A stretch of 64,000 nucleotides of DNA, from contig NC_092649.1 of NCBI RefSeq assembly GCF_032118995.1, forward strand, positions 29,526,927-29,590,926. The letters are read 5' to 3'. The position numbers were made by a program, and so were the translations under genes. The notes below the pieces were generated by a model, which worked only from the letters and a program-made list of their open reading frames with translations, did not search any database and was not told where the DNA came from. Shown piece after piece: positions 1,954 through 26,636 of the stretch. Numbering within the stretch: the first letter of the stretch is position 1; each line of letters opens with the position of its first letter. The stretch is from Asterias amurensis (Eukaryota; Echinodermata; Asteroidea; Forcipulatida; Asteriidae).

Positions 1954-2131
1954 TGTACGGCTTTCTGTCTCCTTGTCAGTCGTTCGTGGAGTCGTTCAAG
2001 GTTCTTGGCATATTCCATCTCCACCTCAGCACGTTGCTTGAAGTATTCCTGGAAGTCTTGGAGTTGTTCCCGTTGGGCGTCATAACGATTATCTAAAGAT
2101 CTCAGTTGGTCGGTTAGTCTTTGACGAATAT
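1954..2131 (-). CDS. SRGAP: srGAP coding exon 2 (F-BAR/FCH region)
   Basis: This exon encodes the start of the F-BAR domain of a SLIT-ROBO Rho GTPase-activating protein. The family bends membranes through F-BAR dimers and inactivates Rac/Cdc42 through a RhoGAP domain. The minus strand reads DIRQRLTDQLRSLD, then LQDFQEYFKQRAEVEMEYAK, then NLERLHERLTRR. It lines up with the vertebrate srGAP segment that has LQDLQDFFRKKAEIE and YSRNLEKLAERF. The acceptor is ttcttgcag at 2132-2140. The donor GTAAGT follows base 1954, leaving phase 2. The aspartate codon is completed by the last G of exon 1, so the junction reads VK-DIR as expected. The exon is 178 bp. The F-BAR remainder, RhoGAP and SH3 exons lie outside the window. 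Which vertebrate paralogue it corresponds to cannot be said, because a single invertebrate srGAP is the likely ancestor of all of them. Confidence 0.93.
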
Positions 2132-3326
2132 CTGCAAGAAGATGAAACCATATTTCTATGAAATAGGTAATTGCTAGACTTGACTCATGAGGCAATTTCT
2201 GTAGGAATGTGTTGTCAGTTGCTTTGGTTCCTAAGAATGGTTGCATTCCATTTCTCATTCAGGCAGTTTGTGAATGTTGTAGCTGTGTCAGGCAGTATTC
2301 GTCAGTTATTTTGTCAATTTATCAGACTCAGAAGAAATGCTGAAACCAACTACATGTACAAGTAGAATCAAAAAGCTTTTTCCCATCTGTCGTAGAGTAC
2401 CATAGACCTTGCTTGCCTGATTGAAATACACAAATTTTCTCAAGTGTTCTAAACATCTCGGTTTCTTTCCTACAATGTCTGGGAAGCCATTCAAGTTAAA
2501 TGGCAAAGGTTCAAAATTATTTTACAAAGTTTGAGAAAAATAACAAACATTGGCATATAGGGTGATGGGTGCTACCACACATTTTACCATATTTAAGCCA
2601 GCAATGTGTTTGAGAGCCTCGTGGAAGCATTATACTTTGAATTCTGACACACCATATTTTCATTTTCATAGCAAGTGTAGTACACAGTTTTTAAAAAAAA
2701 AATTAATTTACACTAAATTTTGACAAATATTCAGTAAACTTGGATATACCCCAGTACCCCTGATTTTAAAACCCACGTATAACAACCCTGTTTACTTCCT
2801 CCATGATTTTAGTGGTCCTGAATATAAGACTACTACACCAATCAGCCGTGATTGAACACAGAACGAACATGTCAACACACGACAAGTATTAAAATCACAA
2901 GCCAGAATCCAAGCAAATTAAGGCGCCGAGAATATGCCATATCGCAATCATCACCAGCCAATTGCATCAACACTAGATACAGTAAGCCTGGTAAATGTCC
3001 AACATGTACGTATACAGTGTATACATGTAATCAAATGCAACCAGACAAAGTGCCAAGCATGCCTCACTATCTCTCTGAAACAAGCAAATCAGTTTTTGTT
3101 CCACTTGCACACTGTATTTTGATTTGTTTATTTTTTAACTTTTTGTCCCTGAACATTGGAGAGTGATATAATGTATCGCACTGAATACATCCCATAGACT
3201 GCAGTAATCATACCTACATGTAGGAGTTAAAGTTTGGAGTACAGGTGTACTTAAAGCTAACTGTGTAACATTACAATCATCTATCATGTCTAGCGTAGGG
3301 TTTGGTTACAGTACTTCTATTTCAAC

Positions 3327-3714
3327 TTAAAGGCAGTGGACACTATTGGTAATTGTCAAAGACTAGCCTTCACAGTTGGTGTATCTCAACATATATGCAT
3401 AAAATAACAAACCTGTGAAAATTTGAGCTCATTCGGTCATTGAATTTGCGAGATAATAATGAAAGAAAAAACACCCTTGTCACACGAAGTTGTACAGTTG
3501 TACGTGCGTTTAGATGGTTGATTTCGAGACCTCAAGTTTTAAACTTGAGGTCTTGAAATCAAACTCGTGGAAAATTACTTCTTTCTCGAAAACTATGGCA
3601 CTTCAGAGGGAGCGTTGTTTTATACCATCAACTTCTCCCCATTACTCGTCACCAGAAAAGGTTTTATGCTAATAATTATTTTGAGTGATTACCAATAGTG
3701 TCCACTGCCTTTAA
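3327..3714. mobile_element. TTAA-flanked fold-back MITE, family M1
   Basis: Both ends are inverted copies of AAAGGCAGTGGACACTATTG, directly bordered by TTAA on each side. The middle is a near-palindrome (around 3525-3560, GACCTCAAGTTTTAAACTTGAGGTC). There is no coding capacity. TTAA target duplication suggests a piggyBac-like or other TTAA-using transposase acting in trans; the superfamily is not provable here. Related copies lie at 7136-7450, 25863-26262, 35918-36264, 46604-47111 and 60404-60730. Confidence 0.85.
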
Positions 3715-4530
3715 TCAAAAACACTAAAAAGGCCAACTCCTTCAATATCCAACAATGTACTTGCTAAAACGAAAGAATTAGGACTTGGGCAATCAGTCAT
3801 CTTTAATCTGGCTTTAAATTAGGGTTTTTGGTCTTATTAAAACTTTCTGCTAAGATACATTTTTTTTTTTTTACATTGTATATTGTAAGTTAGGATGTGC
3901 ATAAAAATGTTTCCAAGACAGTTGTGCATGCCTAACTACATCTACATCCCCATCTAATCACACAAGCCTGCAATACTACACCTACATACATTTGTGTAAT
4001 GTGTATTTCACATGATTTATGACTTAAATGCCCCAGCCAGGTTAAACGAAGATGAGTCCCTGGATACAGATATCACATTGACTGATGATACATTTGTCTC
4101 AATATGGAAAACGACAGTGTATGCCTAGCATTTCAAAGAGGTCAATGAAGTCTTGCTTACTGTTTTCTTGGTACTTACACGTATTCATCAAGTTGATGCC
4201 CCTTAAAATATTTCCGCACATCACAAACATTGTTAGTGAAAGTGCCCCATTTAAATTTGATAGAGAGTACCCATTCAAACATGAAATTCCATTCCTGAGA
4301 GAGTGACTGCCACTGCCAGGCAGGGGCCACCAGATGGCCCACTGCACTTTCGCAGTGCATTATGCGAACTGAAACTACTGTAGATGTATCAAAACCAGCG
4401 ACAAAAATACGAAAGAAAACGAGAGTGACCAAATACATAAATACTGTACAATCACATGGAAAAGGCTAAATATTTCATGTAGTGTACCTGTATACATCGT
4501 CATCATCTTTCATCTTCCTATAGGCCTACT

Positions 4531-4755
4531 GTGTAGCTGAGTAAACTTGCACATCCCACAAACTTCGGGTCAAACCCCTCCTCTTAAAGACACAATACAA
4601 AGTACTGGGTTCTTTCACCAGCAGTACACAGCCCACAAGACCTACGTCCCATCCAAAGGACAAAGTGCATTGCTTATGGACACAAGTGTCAGGACCGGGA
4701 CTCGAACCGGGACTCAAACCCGAGTCTGGTGCGCCTGACCACTCGACATGACACA
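4531..4755 (-). mobile_element. tRNA-derived SINE, minus orientation
   Basis: On the minus strand a tRNA-like head (about 4755-4690) with a B-box-like GGTTCGAGTCC is followed by a core reading CCATAAGCAATGCAC, GGATGGGACGTA and AAAGAACCCAGTA. The same core is found at 14600-14775, 36735-37025, 41262-41415 and 51531-51670. Similar cores are common in marine invertebrate SINEs. The copy is diverged. Confidence 0.75.
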
Positions 4756-5577
4756 CTATGTATCAGCGTTTACAATAAATGTTATGGGTTATGTAAATTA
4801 AACACATTACCAAGGAAATACAGTAATGGCGACCTTCATTTTATATTCAATTGTTTCAATTATAAAATCCATCGTTTTGAAGGCTGTTTAATATAAAGAG
4901 TGACACATTAACTGTGTCTTTAAAATTCCCATAACAATCTCACCCCTTATAAAACCTGCAAAGCACGCCACAGTGACAAGCTCACTTGACCATGGACTAT
5001 GAAATGATTTATACACATTCTATAAATACCACACACATTCTCCATACAACGCCACTAAGGAAATTATATCAGGGTGTTATTTTATCAATAAACACAGCTT
5101 GTAATGGTTAAGCATTATTGCCATCAAATTTAAATCCCACCGGGCCCCGTACAGTTAGACAATGAAATCAGTGACGAAAGATTAGTTTACCGCAGGTTAC
5201 TCCATTAGCTGTGCAGTCTACACTGGTTGAATGCGTGGAATTTGATAGCCAACACTTATAATTTACATATGAAATGATAAAGTGATAAAGAATGTAACTT
5301 ATGCTTAGTGAAATATCCAGTAATATGATTAATTTGTTATTGTTGTGCTGGTGACTGCACCCGCGTATTACGAATGCTGTATGATGATTGTATCTATAGA
5401 CAATAGTATTATTTTCATTGGAAATAATTGATTTCCATCAAAGACACAAAAACAACAGTAACATTTCCTGTCAAAGGAGAGGTTGTTTTTATAATCAAAT
5501 TAATTTTACCAGTATTTATCAGTAAAGGACATCAGTTCTATTATTTCTACTTTTGATTGTTGTTGTTTTTATATATT

Positions 5578-5597
5578 GTTTGTTTGTTTGTTTGTTT
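5578..5597. repeat. (TTTG)n microsatellite
   Basis: Five tandem GTTT units, within srGAP intron 1. No function is implied. Confidence 0.8.
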
Positions 5598-7135
5598 ACG
5601 TAACACGCAGAAGTATTTAGCTTACACACAATTCTACAAAGGCATAAAAAAATTCCAACTGTGTGCAAATATCTTTTTTGGGAGGAGTGCTAGCTCTGAG
5701 AAGAGCTGACGTGGTCTCAACATTTATACAGTATACAGTACTCTACTTGCCTGCAAGAGGAATCTTCAATAACAAAACACTTAACATTACAAGTCAAGAA
5801 GATCACATGAGCAAAAACATAGTCTCCATCAACTGCACATAAAATTCATCCCGTGTTTATATCCAGAATTAGTCACACTATTTAACTTTGTAATATACAG
5901 ATCTTTTACATAGTATAATTCCAGAATTAATTAATTAATTACACCACTTTTTAAGCCCAAACTCTTCGTTGGTTTTCCCCCCAAAAGTAACAAGTCTGAG
6001 AAAGTGTGTATTTTCTATCAGTTGACAATTTAAGTTACATTTATTACCTTGAGATATCGCCCTTGTTGACTGCAGGCAGAGGTTCTTCATTATAACAAAA
6101 ACAAAGCTCCTAGAGTTTGATACAGTGTGTACATTAAACGAGACCACGAAAGGAACAACCAAGGCTAAGAGAGGACTGCTCCCACCACTGTGTACTGCAC
6201 TACATCCAAGCTCCAAATGACGTTGAGCCAAACAACGGTGAGCCAACTGCCCCGTTCTAAAATGATGCACCATGTATCATCATCATCCTCCACAACACCG
6301 CGTTGACAACCACCAAGATTGCTTTGTGCTCGCATCAGTCTGGCTCCGGGCTATTCTAAATATTATTAGCTGCATGAATAATAGGGGGCGGAGGAGGGGA
6401 GTCTGAAACCAGCATGCTCCTCTCTGACAGCGACTCAGCGGCCCTGCTTCGGGCCAGCTTTGGCTGTAACAACAGCTCAGTATCACACCACTCTGATTTT
6501 ATTTGTTTGAAAGCTGACCCACAAGGGACTTTATAACCTTATAGCACCAATAATTATTTTCAGGGATTTTTTTGTTCTGCTGGATATTCTTTTCTCCCTC
6601 GGTCATAATCAGCTGGACGCTTCTAACTTTACCTCATCCCCCAATCATTTAGAGCTATCTCGGCGGACTCAATTATCTGGTTATAACTGGATCACATACC
6701 CTGCAGCACTACTGGCAGTAGGCATCTAATTTACCTCTAATTCTAACTCCCTACTTCAGATCCAAGTCGGCTGTTATCAGAAATTTAAGAGCACCCTAAA
6801 ATCCATCAGGTTTTATCGGAAAATATAAAGAAATATAGCAATTAACATTTTATTTTAACTTGGACGAGGTACACTGCTACGTACATGTATGTACTTTTTC
6901 CTATGATACAGTGCAGTAGAAAACTAGACACCTTTGTAAAGTGCTATAAAAGTGCATGGGGTTTCACAAATTCCCTGCCGTGGTAATACGTCTACAGAAT
7001 GTCACTACCCCCATATTATTTATTCATGAGGTTCCAGGCTTTTTGTGAGTGCCTCATTTGCTCAAAATGATCTCTTTTACATTAGAAATTACATGAACTC
7101 CTTCCACTTTAAGTACAAGTAATTTTTCATAATTA

Positions 7136-7450
7136 AAATAACAAACCTGTGAAAATTTGAGCTCAATTGGTTGTCGAAGTTGCGAGATAATAATGAAAGA
7201 AAAAACACCCTTGTCATATGAGGTTAGGTGCTTTCAGATGCTTGATTTCAAGACCTCAAAAATCTAATTCTGAGGTCTTGAACTCAAATTTGTGGAAAAT
7301 TACTTCTTTCTCGAGAACTACATTACTTCAGAGGGAGCCGTTTCTCACAATGTTTTATACTATCAACAGCTCCCCATTAGTCGCTACCAAGTAAGTTTTT
7401 AAGCTAATAATAATTATTTTGAGGAATTACCAAGTGTCCAGTGCCTTTAA
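7136..7450. mobile_element. M1 fold-back MITE, left end missing
   Basis: The right terminus (AAGTGTCCAGTGCCTTTAA) and the central GACCTCA/TGAGGTC palindrome match the element at 3327-3714. The first 70 or so bases of the family are not present on the left, where homology starts at about AATAACAAACCTGTG. It is more diverged than the 3.3-kb copy, so probably older. Confidence 0.8.
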
Positions 7451-8699
7451 ACTTATATGTGTGATCACTGTATACACAGATATGTGTCAGGATCGCTTTC
7501 CTTTGAACTACTATTATGCCTGTAGACTGTTTTTGTCCACAGACCCGGAAAGCACTATCATACATCAGTGTTGAGTAAAACCACAACTTTATAAGCCCTT
7601 TCCACACTTGTTTCATCGCGTGAAATACAGCCTGGGGAGGCCCTGGGGCTTTTTTACCCCATGCCCGGTGCACTTTCATACTGTCTCCCCTACTTGGAGT
7701 TCCGATTGCATGTTTCAAGAATATCCCAGAGTTTTACCTTTTACCGCTTACCCCTAATACTCTGAAGCAGGCCTGGCTACTCCCTGGGTATGCCCATTTG
7801 TCAGGGCAGATCAAGGGCAGACCGGGGTAAAGCGATCACAGAGTGAAAAGGTCGGCTGAGCTGTTCCCCAGGGGCAAAGCCCTGGGTACAGAGTAGTGTG
7901 AATGAACAGGGCTATACTTCATCCCCAATGAAATCATTACATTCATTGTTGCAGTACACACTGCTAATACAGGATTTGAACTGTCACAGGGGGTACTAAG
8001 TGCTCTAATGGCGAGACATCTGCTCTACTCAACGATGTCAGGATGGGTTCGATTCCATTCCAAGTAGTTTGCCTATTGGATGTTGGTTTTTCCACAAGAC
8101 TTATCACACATTGGTTAAAACGAAAATATTATTTTTTACCCTAATGCAATTATTATGTACTATTACGTGTATTATCAGCCAATACAAATATTCTCAAATG
8201 CTGCGGGGAATCAATTTTCCAAGCCAGCAAGAATTTTTTGTCTATGTAGCCTGGTCTAAAATTTAGGTACAAATGGGTGACGCACAAGCAGGTGAATAAA
8301 CCCTGATACGGCAGGCTGAACAAACACCAAGAAAGCTTTCACACTTTAGACAAACAATGAGATGGTTGCAAGAAGGGGCAAATGGAACAATGAAGATGAT
8401 TTCCCTGAGGTGTCTGACGGGAGGGAAAGCATATATCTAGAGGCTCCCTCAGGAAATTAGTCTCAGTGTTTCTTTTCTTAACTTTTCTTTTTAATTACAA
8501 CACTTAGAGGATGAAATGTAGGCCAAAGAAAAAATGGATTTAAAAGAAAATGGAGTTGTTTGGAAGCTCTTGTCTCTTTAAACAAGCTCTTGAAATCTAG
8601 GCCAAGGGTCGAATGACTGTTATTTTAAATGTACATTTTATGGAGGCACAAAACCTGTCTTTTCAGACAATGGAAGAATAACACACCTTTTTTGTTACT

Positions 8700-8905
8700 C
8701 TAGCCATCAGGCAATCTTGTCAGGCTTAGTTGGTCAGACATCTGCTCAAGATTGGCAAAGGCCATGGGTTCACATCCCACCCGAGCAATATGCCTGGGGT
8801 TCTTGAAAGTACAGAGTACACAGTTCTTTCATACATCGGTGTTAGGGTAAAACCAAATAATATTCTTTATCTCTGTTGCAAATTTAACATAGTTTTAAGT
8901 TCCTC
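8700..8905 (+). mobile_element. tRNA-derived SINE, second family
   Basis: A tRNA-like head (AGTTGGTCAGACATCTGCTC, then GGGTTCACATCCCACCCGAG) is followed by a tail with GAAAGTACAGAGTACACAGT and CATCGGTGTTAGGGTAAAACC. The tail matches 61462-61618 almost phrase by phrase, which shows a dispersed family. Another weak tRNA-like scrap lies just upstream at about 8000-8060. Confidence 0.7.
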
Positions 8906-8992
8906 ACTTGCTTTTGATACGTGTACAACGACATGTATTGGCATCCATTTTGACCAGGAAGTTATGGTAAAAAAAATTAGGAATAACTTGAG

Positions 8993-10690
8993 CAGGGTTC
9001 GACCTTAACGCTGGTCCGCTGGCCAAATGCCAGTAGAAATCGCGGCGGACCAGCTGAAACACCTTGCCAACTGGTCCGGCTGACCAGTCAAAAATATCGG
9101 CAGCGGTACTACAGAACTATGACTATTATTTAAATATTTTTAGGCTCGAATAAAACATAAAAACATTCACTCAAGGTTTGGATAAAACGTAAAAGAATCA
9201 CCCGAAGTGCCGCTGAACGCTGGCAAACTTCCCACGATAACGCATACACATGTACACACAGCGCAAAATCCCATCATGCAACGTAAATGCTTGTAGTCTT
9301 CGTATTAGTTCACGTGTGCCAAAAAAGGTAAGAAACATTGATCGCTAGAGGGCGTTTCAGAATATTCGATAGCGTGAGAATAGACGCCCTCTATTGGTGA
9401 AAGTACGCGATAGCTTACAAAACTAGCTTCAATCGCCTTGACAAAAGACCACAAAGCAAAACACATTCTGTCAGCAGCAGCATGGTCGTCGTCGTCAACA
9501 AAGCAGATTTCCGTGTGGGGAAAAGAGTCTAGCGTGTTTACGAAAAACGAGCGAGACGATGAGGCTTCATTGAACAAAAATTACAAAGTTAGGATACTCT
9601 TGATGAGCAAAAAGGAGTATTTAATTGGGATTAGTATGGTTCTTCCGTCCTGATTTTGCTTAATTTTTTTTGTTATTTGGGGCTTGTTTTTTTTTGCGGG
9701 CGATCGGTGGGCGATCTAGTTTTGCTCCATGGTTTTATTGGTCAAATATAATGCGTGGTTGCTTCGTTGTTTTTTTTTGCGGGTTCAAATTTCAAGAAAT
9801 ACTTGGGTTCTCGAATGCAACACCTCCATGGTTTAACAAAGGCGCAGTTGTTTTTGCTGCTTTTAAATGAATTTTTTCTTCACAAAACAGACAACGGCAC
9901 CGACCATTCCGTACACATAATTAAAAAAATACCGTAAAACGCCGTATGCTTCTCCATGGATGTTGCAACTATTTTGATGTCTACTTTTTGTTGTTTTTTT
10001 TCTGGACGAAAGTGGGAAGATTTTGGGAACTTCGGTTGTCGGTATGATGTATTGTGTTTATGAATACTTAATATTAAAAGTACAAACAGGCAATGTTTAT
10101 ACATGATAAATAACTTAAGCGATCGCACGTAAACCCTCCCCACTGTAGATTTGAAGGCAATACATAAAAAGTTAATATTTTTAACAGTCGGTTTTAAAGT
10201 GTTTTTTTTTGTTAAGTAAAACAATAAAAACAAATTCATACAAATGTTCTTCGTACTTGAGAATACTTCGATGTCCAATGCTTACAATAAACCGTAGACT
10301 AAAAAATTACCTAAATAAAGATCATGTTAAATTTTCCAATTTGCTCTCACAAATAATTTGACCTGTTTTTAAATTAATTTTAATAAGATTATTATTACTT
10401 TTTTTAAAGAAAAAATACTCTCAAATTAGTGAGCCCCCTTACGAACACAATAACTTGGTACACATAAATAAAGTATGGCTTCCAGTGCAGTTAAGTTGAC
10501 GTTGCAATTCATGTTGAATTTTGAAATAGCGGCGATTAAAAATCGAGCAGTTGGTATACAACAGTATTTTTTTAGTTAAAAAAACATATAAAAAAATTTG
10601 ACGGACCAGTCAAAAACCTGGCGGACCAGTGAAAAATCAAGCCAACTGGTCCTGCTGGCCAGTTGAAAAAAAAGTTAAGGGCAACCCCTG
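8993..10690. mobile_element. TIR DNA transposon, non-autonomous, 1.7 kb
   Basis: The left end starts CAGGGTTCGACCTTAAC. The right end, read on the minus strand, starts CAGGGGTTGCCCTTAAC. TTGAG is present immediately outside both ends (8988-8992 and 10691-10695), a likely 5-bp target duplication. Just inside both ends are GGACCAG/CTGGTCC phrases in inverted orientation. Internal frames are short and I recognise no transposase. The CAGGG start resembles hAT termini, but hAT elements normally duplicate 8 bp, so the superfamily is left open. Confidence 0.65.
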
Positions 10691-11794
10691 TTGAGACCAC
10701 AGTGGAACACATCTTTGCAAAGGGACACATTCACTGCACCTGTTAAGCTTTGGTGTAGACTGAAATTCCACCTTTGACTTCAATATAATACACTGTCAGA
10801 GATTATTCATTGAGGTGGAACAAGTTTCACAAACATGACTCACCTCATAAGGATATATTCAAAATAGTGCTACGGTGCACTACACAATTTTGGGGGTCAA
10901 AACCCAAGAGAATCCAGTGGTTTTGCATTGAGTGGGTACTAAAATGAGACTACAAAACACACAATGCACTGTACAGGAACAGCATTTTGAAAAAATGAAG
11001 AAATTATCTGATGCTTAGTACACAATTTTATCTTGTTTGCATATTGCGCATTAAAACAGCTAATAATTTTGTTAATTCGTTGTCGATTCATTTGTGAATA
11101 AATTTGAGTTATTGTTCTGTTCCACATGTGCAAGGCAATTGCATCAGTAAATTATTGCATCGATACTTAGGTGTGGCTACTCTTATCATAAAATCCATCA
11201 TACATGTAAGTACATGTATGACGTGCATACATGATTGAGTTTTTGCTGCAACTTCTACTTCCCTTGTATCTGCAGTGTTAGACATCAGTTAACGTAGGCT
11301 ACATGAAATGACCAATAAAAGAAATGTGCACGTTTTGCACGTACTGTACTATCCTTACTTAGAATTAATCTTCAGCTAAGGTTGAGTTCAGTTCTGCAAC
11401 TATAGACGTTAGGATACATTGAACCCATCCTAAGTTCAGAGAGGTTACTCTTCTTAACTCGAGATTAATCCTAGCATTTTGTGAAATCGGCCGCTGGAGC
11501 CTTTTGGGAACTTAGTATCTGGACCCCCTTGCACTGATGTCTCATGCAGCTACTGTCTGCCAATGGTCTACCGATTTGGGGAAAAAATTGCATATGATAA
11601 AGATGGTACGTGTACTCACCTCCCAAAATGAGCAGCAAAAATTTCATGGCTTATAATCAGCCTCCTCCACTTAACATGCAAGCGCTGATTTTCGGCGCAA
11701 GCTGTGGAAGCGAAGAATGCCTCGTAACATGGAATTCGCACACGCATAAATAAAAATTTCCTGCTTACCCCATGCCCCCCCCCCCAAAAAAAAA

Positions 11795-11806
11795 TATAAT
11801 AATAAT

Positions 11807-11853
<47 letters not shown>

Positions 11854-11855
11854 TA
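11795..11855. repeat. (AAT)n microsatellite
   Basis: A long run of TAA/AAT units with one interruption, preceded by a C9 and A9 run. Within srGAP intron 1. Confidence 0.9.
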
Positions 11856-12308
11856 ATATAAAAAGGATTTAAGGCACGTTATACTCAACAAATGAAAAAG
11901 CAGACTTGGTGGTTAATTTTGCCGACTGGATTTGAAAGCTGTATCATTTAATTGCTGACAAAACACAAATGCAAGGTAAGCTCCAGTGTTTCACACTTGC
12001 TTAGAAATGCTGCCAAGCGGCATTCCTTTAGCATCAAGATGCTTGCTGTACAAAGTGTTGCACGTATCATAATATGCACTAATAAAGCAGGCAAACATTT
12101 CATAAATTTCTTACAGCTTCAATTCAAAGTGCCTTTTTACATCGACAAACCATACATTGACCGATGTCACGTTATCACTGCATCACTTGTTTTCAAGATA
12201 ATTTATTTCTGTCCTCTTGTAAAAATATCAACATACAGGGCACAATGTGCACAGACACATAATGTAGTTGCAATTTTCGCACATTTCAGGGAACAACATG
12301 CGTCAACA

Positions 12309-12385
12309 AGTGTGTAGGTGTGAAGTGGATGAGAAGGTAGCGCTTTTTGAACTGAGTAGAGTTTGGGTTCTAATTAATAACTACA
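12309..12385 (+). mobile_element. tRNA-like SINE scrap
   Basis: GTGGATGAGAAGGTAGCGC followed by GGGTTCTAATTAATAAC resembles a decayed A-box/B-box pair with roughly tRNA spacing. It is short and diverged. No tail could be assigned. Confidence 0.4.
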
Positions 12386-13420
12386 TGTATTGGGGGCACT
12401 GTCCAACTACGTTGCCATAATTAATGTGCCAACATCAAATCTTGGTGCTGCCATTTTTGGCGTTGGAGGCAATGTCCCTGTCTGTTATACAGCAGAGTGG
12501 GCATTTCAGGCAGATGCGGCGTTTACACAGTCGTGGACGACTCCCATGAAGACACTTACTTACAAGTCCTCAGTGACTTGCCTCGACAATTGGACAAACG
12601 AGCAGGGAACAATTATTTGGAACGAAGCTGCAAAGTTAACATCCCAAATGACTTATAATCAATATGCAAAATTACGGCAGTTTACATTACACGTACGTAC
12701 AAGGCAAAACAAAGGAAGATCAGTGATGCATGATCCACAAATAAATAAAATAATAACAAGGATCTGTGTGTGCAGAGTATACAGACTTTATATCCAGCTA
12801 CTATAATGGCAGTCTTTTTAGTTTCATTCGTCATGTGCAAATTGGCACACATAGAATCAACCCCTGACCAAATGCAAAATGCAAGCAGATGTATCCCAAT
12901 TATCTTTCCCACAAGAATCCCGACAGCCTGGGAACCAGAAAGATAAAGCACATCTTCCTTATGTGCATAGTTTATAAATAACATATTTCTAATAGCCGCC
13001 ACTAACAAGGGCCTGAAATTAATACTGGACAGCAGGCCCTGAGGGCTAGTGATTTCATGTCGGGGCTGGTATCTTTTGACCAGACTAGTCCAGAGGTCTT
13101 GTGTTTTTTTCACTTGAATAATAATACCTCACTGTGCAATAACAAAATAGTGTTCAAATGTTGACTTTGAGTCTGATAAAGATCTTCTTTATTCTGTTGA
13201 GTATTGAAGTACATGTACATACTATGTACAGGCCTACTTAATCTGTACAGTATGATATTAATTGAACTGCTGGTACTTATAACGTTAAAAAAAAATTATT
13301 TTAAACTATTGATTGATTCTGGTCATAGAATGTAAACAACAAATCTTGACTGGGAAAATTGTGAGCTACACAATGTACAAGTCCAGAAGATTTTCCCCAA
13401 AATGTTGAGCTCTTCCCCTC

Positions 13421-13450
13421 CCCCACCCCCCCCCCCCCCCCCCCCCCCCC
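13421..13450. repeat. poly(C) tract
   Basis: A nearly pure C run of about 30 bases inside srGAP intron 1. Runs like this are error-prone in assemblies and can form i-motif/G-quadruplex structures. Confidence 0.9.
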
Positions 13451-14599
13451 GAGGGTTTAAACAGGTTCCATAGTCATTCTAATCTGAACAGCCTACTGCA
13501 ACTAGATCACTTTGTGATGTATGTGTGTGTGTGTGAACATGCAAACTACACAGCAATTAACAGCCAAACTTCAACGTTGCAATCATACACATTATCGAGT
13601 CTGGACTTTCATCATCTGAAATGTTAATTTTCTTTGAGGTGCCATGGCCTACTGCTACTCACACAGCGTGCAATTGGCCCACCCCTTGATGAACATGACA
13701 CATGTTGTGTGCTTTTTGTATTGTAAGACAGGCTCTCCAGCATTTTTATATTACATGTTTCAGAGACAGAGTCCTTTCATCTACAGATCTCTAATATTGC
13801 TTTATGAATGAAGCAAGAAATTGGGAGATGAAAATAAGGAGGTATGACCTGCGCACACCATGGTTCTCTTATGGAGAAAGACGCCCCAGTATACATGCAG
13901 CCCTGTATTTATGTATGCTTCGTTTTTGAATAGGGCAAAGGCACCAAGGCATTGTGTACTTGGTACGTATAAAGGGCATCCTAAGAGAGCATGGAGGCAA
14001 TCGCCTTTGTTGCATCCGTGAAGTATCAGGACAGTACATCGTAGTTTTTGTCAAGAACTACTAAAAAATAATAAAATTTGACTGTATAAACCTGTTAACA
14101 CATTGTATTTTCTTTATAAATACTAATCAGTTTAATAAAAACTTGTTAAATCTGACCGCATAAACTAGATATGTTTTACAGTACGCATATAGTGTGCGTA
14201 TTAAAATAAAGATTGTATTTGAACAAAAAGCCTTCGAACAAAAGAACTGCAAAGGTACCTGTGGTACAGTCTACATTATGCGAGCATCGTTCAATCTTTT
14301 TTACATTGTGGTAAGTTACGAGCTGAGCATACAATACTGTCATGTACATACAGTGCAGCGTCGAGAAAAAAAATGTGTGTTTACATGAAGACTCACATAT
14401 GTACATGTGTGAGCAAACAATGTCTTAAGGGTGTGGCAAATAGCGGAGGTAAAAACATCAGAGAACGTTATTATATAAAAGATATATCAAAGTCTTACAT
14501 AGCGTACACTACATGTACCAACAAGATACTCAAGGCGCTTATATACACTTATATAGAAAGAGAGGTTATTGAAAGTTACGAGTTCTGAGACCCAATTAT

Positions 14600-14775
14600 A
14601 GCACCTTATAAGTGTTTACAAGGTGTTACGGTGCATTTAGCAGCCACAGCCTGGAACACCGGGGCGAACCCCTTCTCTTTTTGATAATTCACTGGGTTCT
14701 TTAACATGTGTTACACAACACATGGGACCAACGGCTTTACGTCCCATCCAAAGGATGAAACATGCTACACAAAAT
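14600..14775 (-). mobile_element. SINE core, minus orientation
   Basis: On the minus strand it reads CATCCTTTGGATGGGACGTA, GTTGGTCCCATGTG, AAAGAACCCAGTG and GGGGTTCGCCCCGGTG. This matches the core of the 36735-37025 SINE. The tRNA-like head is missing. Confidence 0.7.
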
Positions 14776-16246
14776 GTATCAGTTGTAACTAAAAAATCTT
14801 TATTGCAACTCAACATTTAGTGAGCACACAATATTTTTAGTCCGAACTATTTTGCTATGCAAAGTTGCTAAACAATATCATTTCCCGATTGAAGCATATT
14901 GAATGCAGCACTTTAAAGGCGATTTACTCCTCTCAATTACTGTAAAATATGATCAGTGCACAGCAACACTTTTTGTGTCGTTTGGATACGAAAAAATTCT
15001 GCAAAAAAAACTCTATATCATGGCGACTATTGACAAGCCTAGGCTCTGTTGCATCGTGACCATTGCCAATCTTAATGTGCTGTGCAACCATCGGGGAGAT
15101 GTTCAGAATTACATTAAGCTCAACAATAAAAAGGAAAAAGTTTCTTAAATCAGAGAGGTTGTCAAATGAATTTATTTACGGAAAGATTGGATTATTTTCA
15201 GGGAACTTTCTGCAGAATCATGGAGAGTTGGTCTGTCACATTTGTCATTGGTACTGAATGGTAACATCATTATTACCTTTGTATAGTTTGATTCAATTGT
15301 CATGTACACAAATAGGACGTTCCCACTTCCGCATCGCACACTCTGACACTCCAAAGCCAACATTTTCACTTGACCTTTAGTCATGCTTTCTTCCACAAGA
15401 ACCGCAGGTTAATCTTCCTGGATTGTGTTGTTTTTCATCATTATATTTAGAATTTGGCATTCTGTTGTTCAATTTACAATGAAACAAAGTGCATGTTGTT
15501 TTGGGGGAAAATGCATCTGAGTACCACAAACCGTTCTTTTAACTTGTCATCGACCCAAAAAGAGATTGTGAACATACTACATTTATGGGTGGACTTGTAC
15601 ATACACACCCAGGTATGGTTTTGTTATGTGAAAACTTTAATTATTAATATGATGGGACTCATGAGCATTGTGCACTAAAGTGCTATCAGCTGACTGGTTC
15701 ATGTTGACAGGCACAAAGTACAATGCACAATGTAAATGTAGGCCTAATGGTTTAGAGGCCTATAGGTGTAAACCTCAAAGGACTAGGAAAGGGAACAATT
15801 TTGCAACACATCAGTGTTGATTGAAAATGCACCCAAATCTATGCCTAGATTTTGTATAGATCGCTTCAAAATGTTATTTTTCCTGCAAATTATTAATAGT
15901 ACACGTACAATCAGTAAAGATACTTTGAATTTGCTTCAATTGCATAATGTCCGTTGCCGTCATAACCAAAATTGCAAAAGATAATGTTAGTGATACTGAT
16001 TATATTTAAAATGGCAGCATAGCCACAAAGACAGATGGTGAATTGTTTACATGGGCCAAAGAGCACTCAGAGGGCAGCAATAATGAGTGCGAGTGCATAC
16101 TCCATCCAGCAAGGCCTTCCCTTGGTGTTCCAACCAGGCAGGCCTCTACCCATGGTCAAGCCATAGAGCCAGGCTTGCTCTATGCTCCAGCCATGCAGGC
16201 CTCCTCCAAACTCCAGCCATGCACAAATATTCAGATCTTGCATGTT

Positions 16247-16500
16247 TGAACCATTGCACGGTTTTCCTCTTATGTCGCAAACTAACATGGTCAGCCATTT
16301 TATAGAGTCAAAATTTTTGCTCCACAAAATGGCCGACCGTGTTTGTTCATGACATTAACAGAAAACTGTGCAACTTCGAGGCATGTTTGTGTGAAACATG
16401 ATATTCTACTTTTAAATTATCTATCTAACCACATGCATCATAACAACCGGTTTCACATGCTTTTCAAAGACCAACTCGCCCGATCCAAGGCAACTAAATT
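16247..16500. mobile_element. Decayed M2 fold-back element, inner part
   Basis: It shares GCACGGTTTTCCTCTTA, the inverted AACATGGTCAGCCATTTT/AAAATGGCCGACCGTGTT and TTTTCAAAGACCAACTCG with the M2 family (34849-35239 and others). Both TTAA ends have been lost or diverged beyond recognition. Confidence 0.65.
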
Positions 16501-18734
16501 CAATGGTATCCTGTTAGTTACCATACTATCATACCAACAATGCAGTAACTCCACAGCAGCCATGGACCATTGCCAATAATTATAAATATTTCTACTTCAC
16601 TAATAAGAAGCAAAACAGACCTTCACAACCAAGGAATTTCCTGTTAATTATGTTACCATGCCTTAACACTGCAGTGGCAAAATGAAAGCAAGAAGTGCTC
16701 ATGTATGTCTGCACACACATGAAATATGACTCAGATGACGAACAATGTAGGCCTACATGATATGGTTATGAAGATGCAACTTGTGAACATTCATGGAGCA
16801 GTCTCATGGTTACAATTAAAGTAAGACCCATCAAATGAATGTTACTCTTGTCAAAGATCCTCTATCAGAAATTATTTAGATGCATTTGTTCTGAATAATA
16901 CAATCAAGTGTAGGCCTATAGGCCTACATTTTGTACATGTTTAAGTGGCAGCAACACATGAGGCTGCAACATTATTTTACGTGTATTGATTGTAATATTT
17001 CAAGAATTTTTTCCCAATTTTTATGTGGAAAATGTTTTCATACAAGCTATTAATTTGTTTACTTGGTTTATATTCTTTACTAACCATCAATCAATCCGGC
17101 TTTCTATTCAAAATCCCTTACTAACAAAAAGTAAGAAAATTTAAACACATAGACTGTTAGGAAAATAAGCAACTGTGAACTTGTGTGAAACAGCACTTCC
17201 GAAGGGAACAAATTTTTCAAAGATGTAATTCATGCAAGGGCTTGTCAGAGTTCCTTGCTTGCTCTATGGTCAGAGCATCAGAGCCACCTCCATATCCCTT
17301 TACAAGTTCTTTCATGGGAAACAACAAAAAGCCACAATGCGTGTTTACTTTGAAAGCAGCTGCTTTTGTGTGGTCTCTTGGTCAATGACTGGTCAGGAAA
17401 TAAACAGAGTCCCACTAACCCCCAGGCAACTACAGCGAGTCCATGGGTAAATACTAGGATGTCATCTTAATAAAATAACTATTCTTCTGCAATAGTTGGA
17501 GATTTCAAAAGGTGAAAGTGAGGAGGGGGGATCAGATGTCATCAGTTTTGATTGAAGGTTTTTTATTTCATGACCAGGAGGAGCAAATTGAGAGTTTCCT
17601 CAGGTCTGGAGGTCGTTATACCCTAAGATGTCTAGAAAAAAAGTCAGGCCTGATCTTTAAGAAATATTTAATTCAAAGGAGGACCTTTTCTGGTATAAAT
17701 AATAACAAAGGAATCATACATCCTGGTTCAGATGTTTTTGAAGTCTGCATGTTTATCAAATTAAAAATAATGTACACGCAAAGAAAAACATTTGATTATT
17801 TACATCAGTGACTGATTATTCCTTGAAGGCCAAGCATAGCAAAATGCATGCTACACAAAACCTAGTAGTTGATAAACTCAGAAGTCATTGATTGCTAATT
17901 AGCATAATTAGCATTCAGTCTGCACAATTTCGTTCAGTCTAAAAATTTCACTAGAATGCAAAATTGCTGACCATTATTTCCTGAAGGTTGTTCTTTTTGT
18001 GAAAAGTAAATCACAGTCAGTGTGAACATTCATGCAATAAATCAACAGCCATGAGCCTGTGACCAATGTCAAATGATGTTTTTTCCGCAAACAATTTACT
18101 TAGTCAAATGGATCGACATTTGTTTTCATACAATTTGTTTTTAATAATTTGTAAAGTTGTTTTGTTAATGTACGGTATTTATTGTTATATCTTTCACTCT
18201 TTCACGGTTTTGATGACAATTTGCATTTGTCTTTGGCAACTCAGAACCTACAACAGAAAATGGAACTTGATTGGAAGAGGGGGGGGATTGAATAACATAA
18301 TCACATCACAAAGACAAGCAAAACATTATCCAACATAACAGCACTTTGTACAAGTATGGTAGTTCTATAAATAATGATGATTCTATTCAAATAAGATAAA
18401 GTCTTTCATTGTAAGCATGCTGGCAGTGATTAAAATCAACCTCAAGCATCAACAACAAACTCCCTCATAAAACTAATATTTTACTTTCAGTGGCCATCAT
18501 ACGTGTACAGAACTGCAAAGATAAGTTCTGTACTCAGAGACCGAAAGGGTCCATGACAAAACTCTCAGATGAAACTGAAAGACTCGGTAATGTACACATG
18601 AAATGATGTAACGTCATTACTAGTATAGCTTTCTACAGTAAGGTTCCTTACAAACTCACAAAGGTTTCATGAGTACATTAAATGTATAACAGGCCCAGTG
18701 CTTAAGGGTCCCTTGAAAAAGGCGTTATTCAAAG

Positions 18735-18844
18735 AGCACCTCTAAAGAAATTGTACATTTTACATGGAATATTTCAAAGGGGCATCAAAGGGCACCTCTA
18801 AAGAAATTGTACATTTTACATGGAATATTTCAAAGGGGCATCAA
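18735..18844. repeat. Two-copy tandem duplication, 56-bp period
   Basis: The phrase CACCTCTAAAGAAATTGTAC to AATATTTCAAAGGGGCATCA occurs twice head to tail with almost no differences, so the duplication is recent. Confidence 0.9.
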
Positions 18845-20434
18845 GGCAATGGCCAGTGTTTAAAAACACCCCAAATCAACAAATTAATGTTATTTTCCAA
18901 GAGTTGTTACAACTTAACTTTAAAGAGATATTTATCAGAAAATAGGGTTTTACAAATGAATGAATACGGTATACTAATGATATCTTTTTAAAAGGTATCT
19001 GATAAAATCAAAACTATTCCAGCTTGCATTGTATTGATACCATAATGATGAAGCTGCAGTAATTACAATCAATGCTGGAAGCTAGCGGGAGTCAATTCCA
19101 AGTTTCACCAATGTCTCACACACAGCAAGGTTATTTTCTTTCAATTTAAATACTCCACATTCTTTGTCCAAATAATCAAAGCTTACTCCACCCAACCAAC
19201 CAACCTAGCCACCCACTCATGCAGTCTCAAGTAAAGTATCCTCCATTGCCCCATAGCTGGGCAACGACACTATCCAAGACTAGCAGTATGGAATTGCTAG
19301 AATTAGTTGACTTTGAGAAACAGCAGGCAGGCTGGTTCAATTGGAGGTTCAACTGGAGTGGAGGTTCGTGGCTAAACCACAAATGTCTCAGAACCTGAAT
19401 ATGTTGGACTGTCTAATAACCACAACCAATAGGTCTGAGTCTGGTGAATGAAGGAGTTCTATAGTTTACTTTATGGAGGGCTTGGTACACCATACAATCC
19501 ACATGTTTCATTTAAGGATCTTCATAGGACAATGAACATCATCAGAATTTCAAGTTTACATTAATTTTTTTCGCTAGTTGGGTGTCTTTTTATCAACACA
19601 CATACTCAAAGTCAATTAATAGTGTCTGCTTACTGTACAATTTGTACATCATTAGTAAATGATGTTGTGGGTCTTAATTAATCATGTTATAAAAATTAAC
19701 TTTTAAAAATATCTTTACAGACAAAAACATCTGCATTGCATACAATCAAAAAGTTTACCAGCATTTTAAATCTGTGTCAATTAATTCTCATTGGTTGGGT
19801 GTGATATCTTATTGCGAACTCAAAGTCAAAGAGTCAAAGAGCGGTTTATTGAATGTATTTTTTCCTTAGCAACATTGGCCTTGGGCCGGCTAGGCAGGCA
19901 TACTTTTCTTGTCGTTGTGTTTTGTTTGACAGAATCGGTACACACAGAAGGAATGCCAAGATTGGATAGCAATCACATTTGAGTTAATGTTTGGATTTAA
20001 GTTTAAATTAATTGCAGCATACATGTAACTTTCCTCAGCTCAGGTGGAAGGTATGGAGGGCTGGAGGGTGATGCCTTACCCAAGGCAGGGGCCAACCTTT
20101 CCATATTTAAGTTTAGTTGATTCAATAAAACAATATTAATCGATCTTTACATTACCAGATTACAAATTTGCGGAGGCCTCAAATCATTTTGTATACGCCC
20201 CTCCTTCAAAAAAGAAAAAAGGGCTCTCTTGTATTTAGTTAGTTGTCGTAGAATAGGTTTTTGAGGTATCCATACGCAACATTTATGCCCAACTTATAAG
20301 CACAGGAACTGTGCACCGAGCAAAGTCACTCACTATCTGCCAGTCATTTTGCTTCACCATACGGTGAACGTAACCCGCCACCGCGCGGCGTACAGACCGT
20401 TACAAACACACACACACAATGCACATTCACGTAC

Positions 20435-20495
20435 CTTTCACATGCGATTCAAACTCCTGCAATATTTCCTTTTCTTGTTTTCTATCGGACGACAT
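20435..20495 (-). CDS. SRGAP: srGAP coding exon 1 (start codon)
   Basis: This is the N-terminus of srGAP. The minus strand reads ATG then SSDRKQEKEILQEFESHVK, 20 codons plus one base, followed by the donor GTACGTG. It aligns with the vertebrate srGAP start (KKDKEIIAEYESQVK). Joining to exon 2 gives HVK-DIRQRL, matching the family's QVKEIRAQL. The start is chosen because it is the only ATG in this short exon, gives the family's usual N-terminal length, and sits just downstream of a promoter-like region. The gene runs leftwards; its divergent neighbour FAM72 starts 441 bp away. Identification is strong because both exons and their phase agree, although only about 79 codons of the protein are in the window. 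Confidence 0.92.
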
Positions 20496-20936
20496 TTTGA
20501 CGTGGTGTAACTCCTAACATAAAACTGTCATCACATGGTCTTACCAGCCAAGGTTTTGCCGTCAACTTATTCAAAACACAGTCGGAAAAAACTCTCACAG
20601 TGTCAACCTTCTCCGGCTAGTCGCCATTTTCTGAGATCACGGAAATACTTTTCTGCTGCAGAGAGCAGCCGCACAGACTGCTGGGAAATAATCCTTTTGT
20701 AGTACCGACGACGGACCAGGCAATTTGATTGGTCAATCACTCGAGTCTGGCGTTATGCTCTAATAATTCAACCACTCAAAATTGTTGTTGCTGCGAGGTC
20801 GTTTGTATCGCCAACGTATAAATAATCAGCAGCTGTTGTCATTCGGGCATTTAAATTTTACACTGTCCCGATATTGAGGAAAGAGTTCTTATTTTTTTCC
20901 AAGTAACTCGTTTGTTTTGCAGGGAACCGGGTTACA
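20496..20936. promoter_or_regulatory. Shared bidirectional promoter of srGAP and FAM72
   Basis: Only 441 bp separate the two ATGs, so both promoters must lie here or in unseen upstream exons. On the srGAP side, the minus strand has AAAATGGCGA (20621-20630), a YY1-type site of the kind often found at start sites of TATA-less genes. In the centre, ATTGG (20728-20732) is a CCAAT box on the minus strand. On the FAM72 side, TATAAATA occupies 20817-20824. A good acceptor-like sequence (TTTGTTTTGCAG, ending 20922) precedes the FAM72 ATG by 14 bp, so a 5'-UTR intron is possible. Site function is inferred from motif matches only. Confidence 0.6.
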
Positions 20937-23839
20937 ATGCACCCCAGCTTCAGGAAGAAAAATGTTATCAAGCTTCAGTGCCGTTTTTGTGACTCTTATG
21001 TTTGTAGAAGAGGAATGAAGGCAGTGTTACTGGCCGACACAGCAGTGGAATTGTACTCCACCGATTCACCAATGGCTGGGTAAGAAAATGGGATGTGCAC
21101 TGCGCAGTATTTGGCCCCACTGATTGATGTAAACACACTCGTTTCGTTTTTAAAATTCTGGTGTTGTCTAGTGTTTATCTAGTTGATATATGTTATACAA
21201 CAAATAATATTAGGTTTATGATTAAGTTTGGAATAAACTACAATATATAAATGATAATAATTTATAATTTATAATTATCATGTCATTCCTCCATCATGAC
21301 AATGGTCTGTGCTGTGGTCATACAAAAATTTGACAGTTTTGTAATGGAGGAAGGAAAACCATGGGAAAACTAGGGAAATTCCATTCCAAAGTGGCAGTGG
21401 CATGATGGGTATTTGGCATGGTAAGTTTGGTAGGGTTGCTGATCGCATGATGATGTATTTTGTTTATGATTTACAATTACATTACAAATTCAATATCAAT
21501 ATGTTCAAGATCAAAGGATATTCAAGGGGTGTCAATCTAATAGTTAGTTGTCACAAAAGAGTCTGAAATATATCCCCAAAATAATTTCAAAATGGGACAA
21601 CAGCCAGATACGTTGGAATGAAGGTCAGATATTCAGCATTGTTTTTTGCTTCCCTAATTTGTTTTTAAAAATGTGTGCTTTTGCAAAAAACTAACCATTT
21701 TGAAACACTACTCTACTCTGTGGACGTTTGTGTTTTTGTGTTGTATTAAATACAAAAAGTACCCTTACACTTGGAAACCCATTTTTATTGTGGCAGATTT
21801 GGATTAATTGAGAAAGGGTATTATTTCCTTAGAACTGTAATCCATTATGCAGAAATGGTAACACTAATATAAGACTACAGATCTTGGGCACACCAATTTA
21901 CATGATTTATTTTTCCCTATTTTTTATACAGAAAAATCAGCAACATCGGTAAAAGTTATTCTACTAAAAAGTGCACATGTAAGATTTGCGATGTTGCCTG
22001 TACTAGTTGGTATGTATAAATATGCTTCATTTTATTGGGAACCTTAACACACTTTGATTCCCATTCATAAATACCTTTTCGGTCAAAAACATCAACACTT
22101 TTTGAAAGTAAAATAAATGCAAAAATTATAATTGTTCAATGACTTCTTTTAACACAACATCCCTCCAGCTATGAAATGGTAAAGCCCTCCACCGCCCTCA
22201 GGTTAACAACTCCTTATAATAAGGGAATGCTGTGGGCGTCGCGCGTATCGTGTGATGTGGCACAACTGTTTCAGCCGTTGCTCTCGACCAATAGAAATGA
22301 ATAAACTGTCTTATAAGAACAGGTGCAAGCTCGCATGTCACGTCCATGTTTCAACACTTGTTATTGGTCATAAACAAAGGTTTATACACACCCACGCAAC
22401 GCGCTCTTCACCAATAGGAATAGCGAAGCTGTCTGAGGTATTTATGAATACTAGATTATGAAATGAATTTTTTTTTTTAAATAGCCTGAAAACCTCTGTT
22501 CCGTATGTTTTTGCCCAAGCAATTGTTCCCACTCTTTTCCAACTGGGCCAAATATCATGCCTGGGTCATATTCTTAAAATTTGAATCATCTACCCTTGCA
22601 AAGATTTGTATACTTGCCAAAGTATTCCTTGAGCTGTATTGCTAATGAACTAACACTATTTTTCTTTTTGTATAAAGCGGAAACGTATTGGGTTATCATG
22701 TGATGCTGCCATGTTCTTCGTGCCTACAGTCTTGCAACAACGGACACCTGTGGATCTTCAATAGCAATACAGTCTTCGCAGAAAGTAGACTTAACATTTC
22801 AGGTAAATAGTAGAAGTCACGTAGCGGATGCACCTTTTATATCATTTAAGGGACACGTTGGCTTGGATTGGGGAGTTGGTCTATGAAAAGCGTTGTTAAC
22901 CGTTTGTTATAAAGTGCATATGGTTAGAAAGATGTTTTAAAAGTAGAATATAATGGTCCACACAATTATTCTGTAAAATTGTGTGCTTTTCTTTTTAGTT
23001 TTATCATGCGAACCAACATGGTCGGCCATTTTGTTGAGTAAAAAATATGCACAAATTGGAGTGCTGTGTTAGTTCCTGACACACAAGCATTACTGTGCTA
23101 TTTCGAGGCATATTTGTGTGGATCAGTATAATCTACTTTTAAAACATCTTTCAAACGCTTTTCATAGACCAAGGCAACGTGTTCCTTTAATTATTACAAC
23201 AGAAAGAAGAAATAGGGTAAACTCTTACCCCAGTATTGCCTGAGGGGCTGTAAAATGTACGGTCTAAATTCAGTTTTGTTTTGTGAATTATGATACACTC
23301 ATTTTCCAATTGTGTATAAAAGTTGCAAACCTCATGTTTGAACTGGTGTAAAGTTCCACTTTATTTGATATTCTTTCAGAATAAAAGGGTCTAAAGCCCT
23401 ATACATTCCACACAGAAATTTTATGCGACTTGATCAAATATGGAAATTCTGAAATCCACTAAAAAAATTCCCCATGTACACAAATGAACAGACCCATATT
23501 TTTGAAATATGAGATATCATCTGGTGTTTTTCGGGCTGTAAGGACTCTATCTACTCGAAAATTAGTGTCAACCAAATTTGACCTTGAAGCCTCTCTTATG
23601 AGCCTCTCTTTTTTTTGGGGGAATGTTGGGTGTATTTGAACCAAGAGGAGTGCAGTACATTGCTGACTCACAATGCGGTCTGTTTAGACAATGTTAGATG
23701 CATTACACTCAATTTTTCTCGATACATTACAGCCACAGAGACATTGAGATGGGACAGCCTCCCAGACGCTTCACTGGAGCAAGATTCAGAACTTGATGAG
23801 TGGGATAACTACTTCCAACAGATGGAATGCTGCCGGTGA
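20937..23839 (+). CDS. FAM72: FAM72, complete four-exon gene
   Basis: The exons are 20937-21079, 21932-22009, 22678-22802 and 23733-23839. They total 453 bp and 150 residues; human FAM72A is 149. All introns are GT-AG and the phases (2, 2, 1) join cleanly. Recognisable stretches are LQCRFC, RGMKAVLLADT, STDSP, CTCKICDVAC, then CGNVLGYHVMLPCSSC, NNGHLWIF and TLRWDSLPD. The cysteine pairs suggest metal binding. Trp122 corresponds to human Trp125, which as I recall was reported to be needed for binding the uracil-DNA glycosylase UNG2. In mammals FAM72A antagonises UNG2 in B cells and is proliferation-linked; the role in an invertebrate is unknown but may also involve UNG. Introns 2 and 3 carry MITEs. 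The gene is divergent from srGAP, as FAM72 is from SRGAP2 in human. The first Met gives the expected length. Confidence 0.95.
22053..22450. mobile_element. M3 MITE in FAM72 intron 2
   Basis: The ends are inverted: CCCATTCATAAATACCT on the left and GGTATTTATGAAT on the right. The interior includes CAACTGTTTCAGCCGTTGCT and ACCAATAGGAATAGCGAAGC. The same sequence recurs at 40212-40580 outside any obvious gene, so this is a mobile repeat. It begins about 45 bp after exon 2. No coding capacity. Confidence 0.75.
22846..23190. mobile_element. M2 fold-back MITE in FAM72 intron 3
   Basis: TTAA-bordered element starting TTAAGGGACACGTTGGCTT and ending AAGGCAACGTGTTCCTTTAA, with an inner inverted GGTCGGCCATTTT. 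It is more diverged than the copies at 34849 and 62762. It begins 44 bp after FAM72 exon 3. Confidence 0.8.
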
Positions 23840-26316: not shown

Positions 26317-26602
26317 TGTCAGAAAGTCTCCGCATCAGGACAGTTTTTGTTATAGCGCCCTCTCTTGAATCAAAATCTCCAATGTTTCCATGATCATACT
26401 AATCGCCATTTTACAAGTCCGAATCCAAACTAATCACGTAAATTCCTCAAATAATTCCTAAATATCCAGGTTAATCCAATCATCGAATCACTTCTATTAA
26501 TCACCAAAGTCCCGTGCGTGCATCTTAATCAACCACGGGTATATGATCACCAATAAAACACTACAAAAAGTACAAGCAAAGTTCAAGTACACCTTCTTTT
26601 CA
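26317..26602 (+). repeat. 5' LTR of the BEL/Pao element
   Basis: 286 bp, TG...CA ends, seemingly identical to 32796-33081. It contains AATAAA near its 3' end (CCAATAAAACACTAC), a plausible polyadenylation signal used in the 3' copy. Confidence 0.95.
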
Positions 26603-26636
26603 TGGTCCTTCGAGCCGGATTCGAACCAGCGACCTA
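26603..26636 (-). promoter_or_regulatory. Primer-binding site, tRNA-Tyr type, unusually long
   Basis: Directly after the 5' LTR the sequence begins TGGTCCTTCGAGCCGG, the complement of CCA plus the acceptor stem of animal tRNA-Tyr. The match continues through the T-arm (ATTCGAACCAGCG) to about 34 bases, well beyond the usual 18. The tRNA identity comes from memory of the tRNA-Tyr acceptor stem (CCTTCGA). Confidence 0.75.

What the first reader, a model, noticed from the sequence alone, without database searches (positions are those of the whole stretch)
1954..23839. Ancient head-to-head srGAP-FAM72 gene pair
srGAP exon 1 and the FAM72 ATG are 441 bp apart and divergent. Human SRGAP2 and FAM72 are also immediate, divergent neighbours and were co-duplicated in the human lineage. 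Finding the same pair here implies that the linkage predates the split of echinoderms and chordates and may be kept by a shared promoter. Both identifications rest on several matching motifs and consistent splice phases.
Basis: partly seen in the sequence, partly recalled or inferred. Interest (0 to 1): 0.82.

Follow-up and report, generated by a model that had tools for sequence, protein, structure and literature searches.

The report
Ancient back-to-back srGAP and FAM72 genes
Two genes that sit back to back in humans, and that were copied together during human evolution, sit back to back here too in what looks like an invertebrate, so the partnership seems older than backboned animals.

Summary
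On the minus strand are srGAP coding exons 1 (20435-20495) and 2 (1954-2131). On the plus strand is a complete four-exon FAM72 gene (20937-23839, 150 aa, Pfam PF14976 E=1.6e-56). The two ATGs face away from each other with 441 bp between them. The srGAP fragment is about equally distant from human SRGAP1, 2 and 3 (30, 30 and 28 of 74 residues), which are far closer to one another (55-64 of 74; human sequences recalled). So it branches before the vertebrate paralogues split, and the pair looks older than vertebrates. A 2021 review says that species other than vertebrates do not have this pair (PMC7957592, passages). The gap has raised CpG and TATA, NF-Y and YY1-like matches, which suits a bidirectional promoter, but recounting shows this support is weak, and no transcript data were available. 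'Echinoderm', and so 'before the echinoderm-chordate split', could not be tested: no animal genome collection is held and no tool named the species. Verdict: a real, probably deeply conserved divergent gene pair; a new member of the known class of ancestral bidirectional pairs; shared promoter plausible but unproven.

The parts
20435..20495 (-). srGAP coding exon 1 (MSSDRKQEKEILQEFESHVK plus one base); intron phase 1
   Evidence: with exon 2, phmmer best hit SRGAP2 E=3.3e-15 over query residues 6-75
1954..2131 (-). srGAP coding exon 2, start of the F-BAR (FCH) domain
   Evidence: Pfam FCH E=4.8e-9; tblastn with recalled human SRGAP2 E=2.2e-10; AG and GT borders
2132..20434 (-). srGAP intron 1, 18,303 bp; no other Pfam-recognisable gene in the open frames scanned
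20496..20936 (.). 441-bp gap between the two ATGs, candidate bidirectional promoter; CpG observed/expected 0.99 against 0.54 for the window
   Evidence: 231 of 3178 sampled 441-bp stretches of the window reach this value
20817..20823 (+). TATA-box match (TATAAAT) facing FAM72
   Evidence: (0.18 expected in the 526-bp stretch scanned), but present in 33% of 3134 other 441-bp stretches of this AT-rich window; sequence only
20726..20734 (-). NF-Y consensus match GACCAATCA
   Evidence: 0.09 expected; in 7.7% of other stretches; sequence only
20623..20630 (-). YY1-like match AAAATGGC(G) facing srGAP
   Evidence: 0.09 expected; in 8.1% of other stretches; sequence only
20850..20855 (+). CHR-like TTTAAA about 30 bp after the TATA box; not evidence by itself
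   Evidence: TTYRAA gives 6 strand-hits at 3 sites in 526 bp, 3.57 strand-hits expected
20937..21079 (+). FAM72 exon 1 with the ATG
   Evidence: tblastn E=5.1e-10
21932..22009 (+). FAM72 exon 2
   Evidence: alone only E=0.19
22678..22802 (+). FAM72 exon 3 (CGNVLGYHVMLPCSSCLQSCNNGHLWIF)
   Evidence: tblastn with recalled human FAM72A E=1.3e-14
23733..23839 (+). FAM72 exon 4 with stop; holds the tryptophan that matches human W125

Best explanation
This is the 5' end of a pre-duplication srGAP gene and a complete FAM72 gene, divergently transcribed from one short intergenic region in a non-vertebrate animal (which animal is not shown). The arrangement is most simply the same as human SRGAP2-FAM72A by descent. 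The common ancestor already had srGAP next to FAM72; after the vertebrate genome duplications FAM72 stayed beside the SRGAP2 copy, and the gap widened from a few hundred bases to about 4 kb. Shown: both genes, orientation, 441-bp gap, branching before SRGAP1/2/3. Inferred: descent rather than coincidence, and the retaining mechanism, namely that the two core promoters lie so close (start sites perhaps about 200 bp apart, guessed from the TATA and YY1-like positions) that a break would damage one of them. FAM72 would be driven as a proliferation gene through TATA and NF-Y sites and srGAP from a YY1-type start. FAM72 itself is inferred to bind UNG2, as the mammalian protein does, since the tryptophan matching W125 and two of the four residues of the FWMF motif (LWIF here, F104 included) are kept.
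For: Gene identities. Similar distance to SRGAP1/2/3 (30, 30, 28 of 74; they share 55-64 of 74 with one another; of 55 columns identical in all three the window differs in 30; of 19 columns that vary it matches none in 10, SRGAP2 only in 3, SRGAP1 only in 1, SRGAP3 only in 1, two of the three in 4). FAM72 has four exons and 149 aa in human (PMC7957592 Figure 1 legend), four exons and 150 aa here; 63/133 identical. Human pair divergent with a 4-kb gap (same legend). Gap CpG o/e 0.99 against 0.54. [quoted passage not shown] Coincidence is unlikely: with about 25,000 genes a given divergent neighbour is expected in roughly 1 in 50,000 cases (my estimate).
Against: BLAST bits lean slightly to SRGAP2 (70.1 against 64.7 and 63.5). 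Promoter support is weak: the three motifs were chosen after scanning 19 patterns. Their joint absence from 0 of 3134 other stretches and 0 of 5000 simulations compares with only about 6.5 and 2.2 expected if independent, and the 3134 overlap heavily. The CpG value is reached by 231 of 3178 stretches. No E2F, ETS, NRF1, SP1, E-box, full CRE or GATA match. Four ATGs lie 25 to 132 nt before the srGAP ATG, inside the 5' UTR that the guessed start would give. A splice-acceptor-like TTTTGCAG ends at 20922, just before the FAM72 ATG, so a 5'-UTR intron and another start are possible.
Confidence: 0.75

Rival explanations
1. Same pair by descent (so overlapping with the best explanation on history), but kept only by inertia: adjacency without regulatory coupling; each gene has its own promoter, and neighbours that close are rarely broken.
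For: The motifs found lie in separate parts of the gap (YY1-like at 20623-20630 near srGAP; TATA at 20817 near FAM72) and could serve each gene alone; motif support for any promoter is weak. A 2021 review has the human pair used oppositely, FAM72 in proliferating and SRGAP2 in differentiating cells (PMC7957592 passages).
Against: [quoted passage not shown]
Confidence: 0.4
2. The window is from a vertebrate or a close vertebrate relative, so the finding repeats what is published.
For: No tool named the species; the pair is reported from vertebrates.
Against: srGAP branches before SRGAP1/2/3; FAM72 is only 47% identical to recalled human FAM72A; gap 441 bp against about 4 kb in human.
Confidence: 0.07
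3. Chance or independent placement of srGAP beside FAM72 in this lineage.
For: Only one non-vertebrate locus was seen.
Against: Same divergent orientation, with the first coding exon of both genes at the gap; about 1 in 50,000 by a rough estimate.
Confidence: 0.03

Closest known systems
Human/vertebrate SRGAP2-FAM72A divergent gene pair
   Same: Same two gene families, divergent, head to head; FAM72 in four exons, 149-150 aa.
   Different: 441 bp between ATGs here against a reported 4-kb intergenic region; srGAP here is the form before the SRGAP1/2/3 split; the E2F matches reported for human were not found here.
Ancestral bidirectional promoters / conserved microsynteny pairs (amphioxus study PMC6292497, passages seen; Irimia 2012 known only by title and recall)
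   Same: Short divergent gap between unrelated genes, shared with vertebrates.
   Different: Whether srGAP-FAM72 is among the 372 pairs of the amphioxus study or in Irimia's lists was not checked (no look-ups in supplements allowed; Irimia paper not held).

Membership tests
FAM72 (PF14976) | Profile match over the whole domain | tested here: met
   E=1.6e-56, residues 3-138 to profile 2-137 of 145
FAM72 (PF14976) | Cysteines of the presumed zinc-binding core kept | tested here: met
   9 of the 12 cysteines in the compared part of human FAM72A (recalled) are kept, among them the pairs 18/21, 74/77 and 89/92; 12, 17 and 59 are not. Zinc binding itself not tested
FAM72 (PF14976) | UNG2-contact residues W125 and FWMF 101-104 | tested here: inconclusive
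   W125 and F104 kept; the motif reads LWIF, 2 of 4 identical (residues named in PMC8616359 passages)
srGAP | srGAP-type F-BAR N-terminus | tested here: met
   SRGAP2 3.3e-15, next match of any kind 0.013 (a keratin), next F-BAR 0.62; FCH E=4.8e-9
srGAP | RhoGAP and SH3 domains after the F-BAR | not testable with these tools
   no later exon found in the window; they should lie beyond its left end
SRGAP2 (as opposed to SRGAP1/3) | Clearly closer to SRGAP2 than to SRGAP1/3 | tested here: not met
   30, 30 and 28 of 74 identical; bits 70.1, 63.5 and 64.7 for SRGAP2, 1 and 3
Conserved bidirectional gene pair | Divergent starts within 1 kb | tested here: met
   441 bp between ATGs; transcription start sites themselves not mapped
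Conserved bidirectional gene pair | Same pair in several phyla | tested here: inconclusive
   this locus plus published vertebrates; no other invertebrate genome could be searched
Conserved bidirectional gene pair | Co-regulation from shared elements | not testable with these tools
   no RNA-seq, CAGE or reporter data

The most novel reading that the evidence does not exclude
The srGAP-FAM72 switch reported for human neural stem cells is a general animal cell-cycle/differentiation switch that was in place before vertebrates, perhaps before the split of deuterostomes and protostomes (a transcript annotated 'protein FAM72A' is listed in the snail Biomphalaria, PMC4599737). A single short promoter has kept the two genes together for more than half a billion years, and the human-specific duplications copied an ancient regulatory unit, not a vertebrate novelty. 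(Lowered from 0.4 after the recount of the promoter motifs.)
Probability: 0.35. Interest if true: 0.72.

Novelty: new member of a known kind. Interest (0 to 1): 0.52.

Why it matters
SRGAP2 and FAM72 were co-duplicated in the human lineage (PMC8156310 passage) and are discussed as a brain 'master gene' said to be absent outside vertebrates (PMC7957592, Figure 1 legend). A divergent pair in an animal that branched before SRGAP1/2/3 contradicts that statement. It recasts the human event as the copying of an old unit, and it gives a simple invertebrate system in which to test what the shared gap does and what FAM72 did before antibody diversification.

Tried and rejected
Searching other genomes: FAM72 in viral contigs (9 pattern stretches, none confirmed) and genome contigs (56, none confirmed), srGAP in viral contigs (16, none confirmed). 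These collections are viral and prokaryotic, so the misses say nothing about animals.

Naming the species: Rfam gave 0 matches and ARAGORN (bacterial settings) 0 tRNAs. A repeat motif of the window had 0 matches in viral contigs and genome contigs, and three short repeat fragments had 0 matches in the paper library; one of the three turned out not to occur in the window as typed. I have a vague recollection of the palindromic repeats from starfish DNA; this is recall only and not used.

Literature on deep age: FAM72 with SRGAP2, 26 papers, 20 listed, five of them opened for passages. FAM72 with invertebrate, 5 papers, three opened for passages: one is on divergent pairs in general and used only fly, worm and yeast as outgroups, one uses 'FAM72' as a repeat-family name, one lists a snail FAM72A; PMC8529117 and PMC6579814 were not opened. 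FAM72A with sea urchin, FAM72 with Strongylocentrotus, FAM72 with Branchiostoma: 0 papers each. Searches (mixed query, 32 papers, 15 listed; SRGAP2 with bidirectional promoter, 6 papers; general, 68 papers, 15 listed) showed no invertebrate pair in titles and abstract starts. So no print of an invertebrate pair was found, within these searches of this library only; supplements were not searched.

A further gene in the window: the longest 148 of 177 open frames of 62 aa or more outside the BEL element, scanned with Pfam; apart from FCH only two weak single matches (0.0041, 0.0066), taken as chance. The same scan did not recover FAM72, whose exons are short, so genes with short exons would be missed.

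A cell-cycle CHR promoter as in human: TTYRAA 6 strand-hits at 3 sites against 3.57 expected, so not evidence.

A strong statistical case for the promoter: dropped after the recount.
Full report
What is there. The minus strand carries the first two coding exons of an srGAP gene (20435-20495 and 1954-2131, phases 1 and 2). Their 79-aa product matches SRGAP2 in the Protein Data Bank at E=3.3e-15; of 18 distinct sequences matched at E<=1 the only other F-BAR proteins are Gas7 (0.62) and formin-binding protein 1 (0.81). Pfam gives FCH at 4.8e-9. The plus strand carries a complete four-exon FAM72 gene (20937-23839; exons) whose 150-aa product matches PF14976 at 1.6e-56; no solved structure matches it by sequence at E<=1. 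The two ATGs are separated by 441 bp and point away from each other. Both have an in-frame stop upstream (7 and 11 codons before the ATG) and an A at -3.

Chance. tblastn of recalled human SRGAP1-3 and FAM72A sequences over both strands of the window finds below E=0.01 only srGAP exon 2 and FAM72 exons 1 and 3; the shorter exons score 0.43 (srGAP exon 1) and 0.19 (FAM72 exon 2) or are not listed (FAM72 exon 4), and rest on frame, splice sites and the Pfam alignment of the joined protein. That two named genes should be immediate divergent neighbours by accident in a genome of about 25,000 genes is a matter of roughly 1 in 50,000 (my estimate).

How old. The window srGAP matches recalled human SRGAP1, SRGAP2 and SRGAP3 at 30, 30 and 28 of 74 aligned residues, while the three human proteins match one another at 55 to 64 of 74. 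At 55 columns all three agree, and the window differs at 30. At the 19 columns where the three differ, the window matches none in 10, and shows only a slight lean (SRGAP2 alone 3, SRGAP1 alone 1, SRGAP3 alone 1); BLAST bits also lean slightly to SRGAP2 (70.1 against 64.7 and 63.5). No tree was built. The gene therefore appears to have left before the three paralogues separated, which I take (recalled) to be at the early vertebrate genome duplications. Since human SRGAP2 is paired with FAM72A (PMC7957592), the simplest history is one ancestral pair, with the FAM72 neighbour kept at only one of the duplicated srGAP genes; that SRGAP1 and SRGAP3 lack FAM72 neighbours is recalled. [quoted passage not shown] passages). 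A 2025 study of human divergent pairs used fly, worm and yeast as its outgroups beyond vertebrates (passages). The window contradicts the first statement if, as its position outside SRGAP1-3 says, it is not a vertebrate.

What I could not show. The species. The window has no whole genome behind it, and the collections searched here are viral and prokaryotic.

The gap. It has 20 CpG in 441 bp, observed/expected 0.99 against 0.54 in the window; the count is reached by 8.3% of 441-bp stretches and the ratio by 231 of 3178 sampled stretches. It holds one TATA match facing FAM72, one full NF-Y match and one YY1-like match facing srGAP (0.18, 0.09 and 0.09 expected in the 526-bp stretch scanned). 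In the real window the three occur in 33%, 7.7% and 8.1% of 3134 other 441-bp stretches; all three together in none of them and in none of 5000 simulated gaps. But about 6.5 and 2.2 would be expected if they were independent, the stretches overlap, and the three were picked from 19 patterns, so this is suggestive at most. E2F, ETS, NRF1, SP1, E-box, full CRE and GATA patterns gave no match. From the TATA position FAM72 would start near 20848, from the YY1-like position srGAP near 20640 (inference); the latter would put four upstream ATGs in the srGAP 5' UTR. A splice-acceptor-like stretch ending at 20922 leaves room for a 5'-UTR intron of FAM72.

What the proteins do. Mammalian FAM72A bridges UNG2 to the CTLH E3 ligase through MKLN1 and causes UNG2 loss (PMC12223117, passages). 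A modelling paper names W125 and F104 in the FWMF motif as important for the contact (PMC8616359, passages). The window protein keeps W (residue 122) and has LWIF. So an UNG2-binding role is possible outside vertebrates; it is inferred only. The srGAP part seen here is the start of the F-BAR domain; later exons are not in the window.

Where it belongs. An amphioxus study counted 372 putatively ancestral bidirectional promoters, the majority lost in vertebrates (PMC6292497, passages). The pair here looks like one that survived, with the gap widened to 4 kb in human. It is thus a new member of a known kind, whose interest lies in which genes they are. Whether this pair is already in that study's tables was not checked.

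Noticed in passing
26317-33081 (+): Young BEL/Pao-type LTR retrotransposon 2.5 kb after FAM72: two 286-bp LTRs, 286 of 286 identical, 5-bp flanking duplication GTTAT, one open frame of 2073 codons (26501-32722) with DUF1759, Peptidase_A17 and DUF5641.
   Followed up: partly
16253-16438, 22873-23165, 34878-35242, 39092-39477, 62762-63155: Palindromic MITE-like repeat family; one copy lies inside FAM72 intron 3. Could serve to name the species.
   Followed up: partly
42342-44636 and 52739-54953: Direct repeats about 10.3-10.4 kb apart, 89-98% alike in the pieces listed, perhaps two copies of a mobile element.
   Followed up: no
about 151-750, 9001-9600 and 62801-63550: CpG-rich stretches (o/e up to 1.52), two of them in or below srGAP intron sequence, without a clear Pfam match in the open frames scanned.
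   Followed up: no
11796-11858: ATA trinucleotide array, 21 copies.
   Followed up: no
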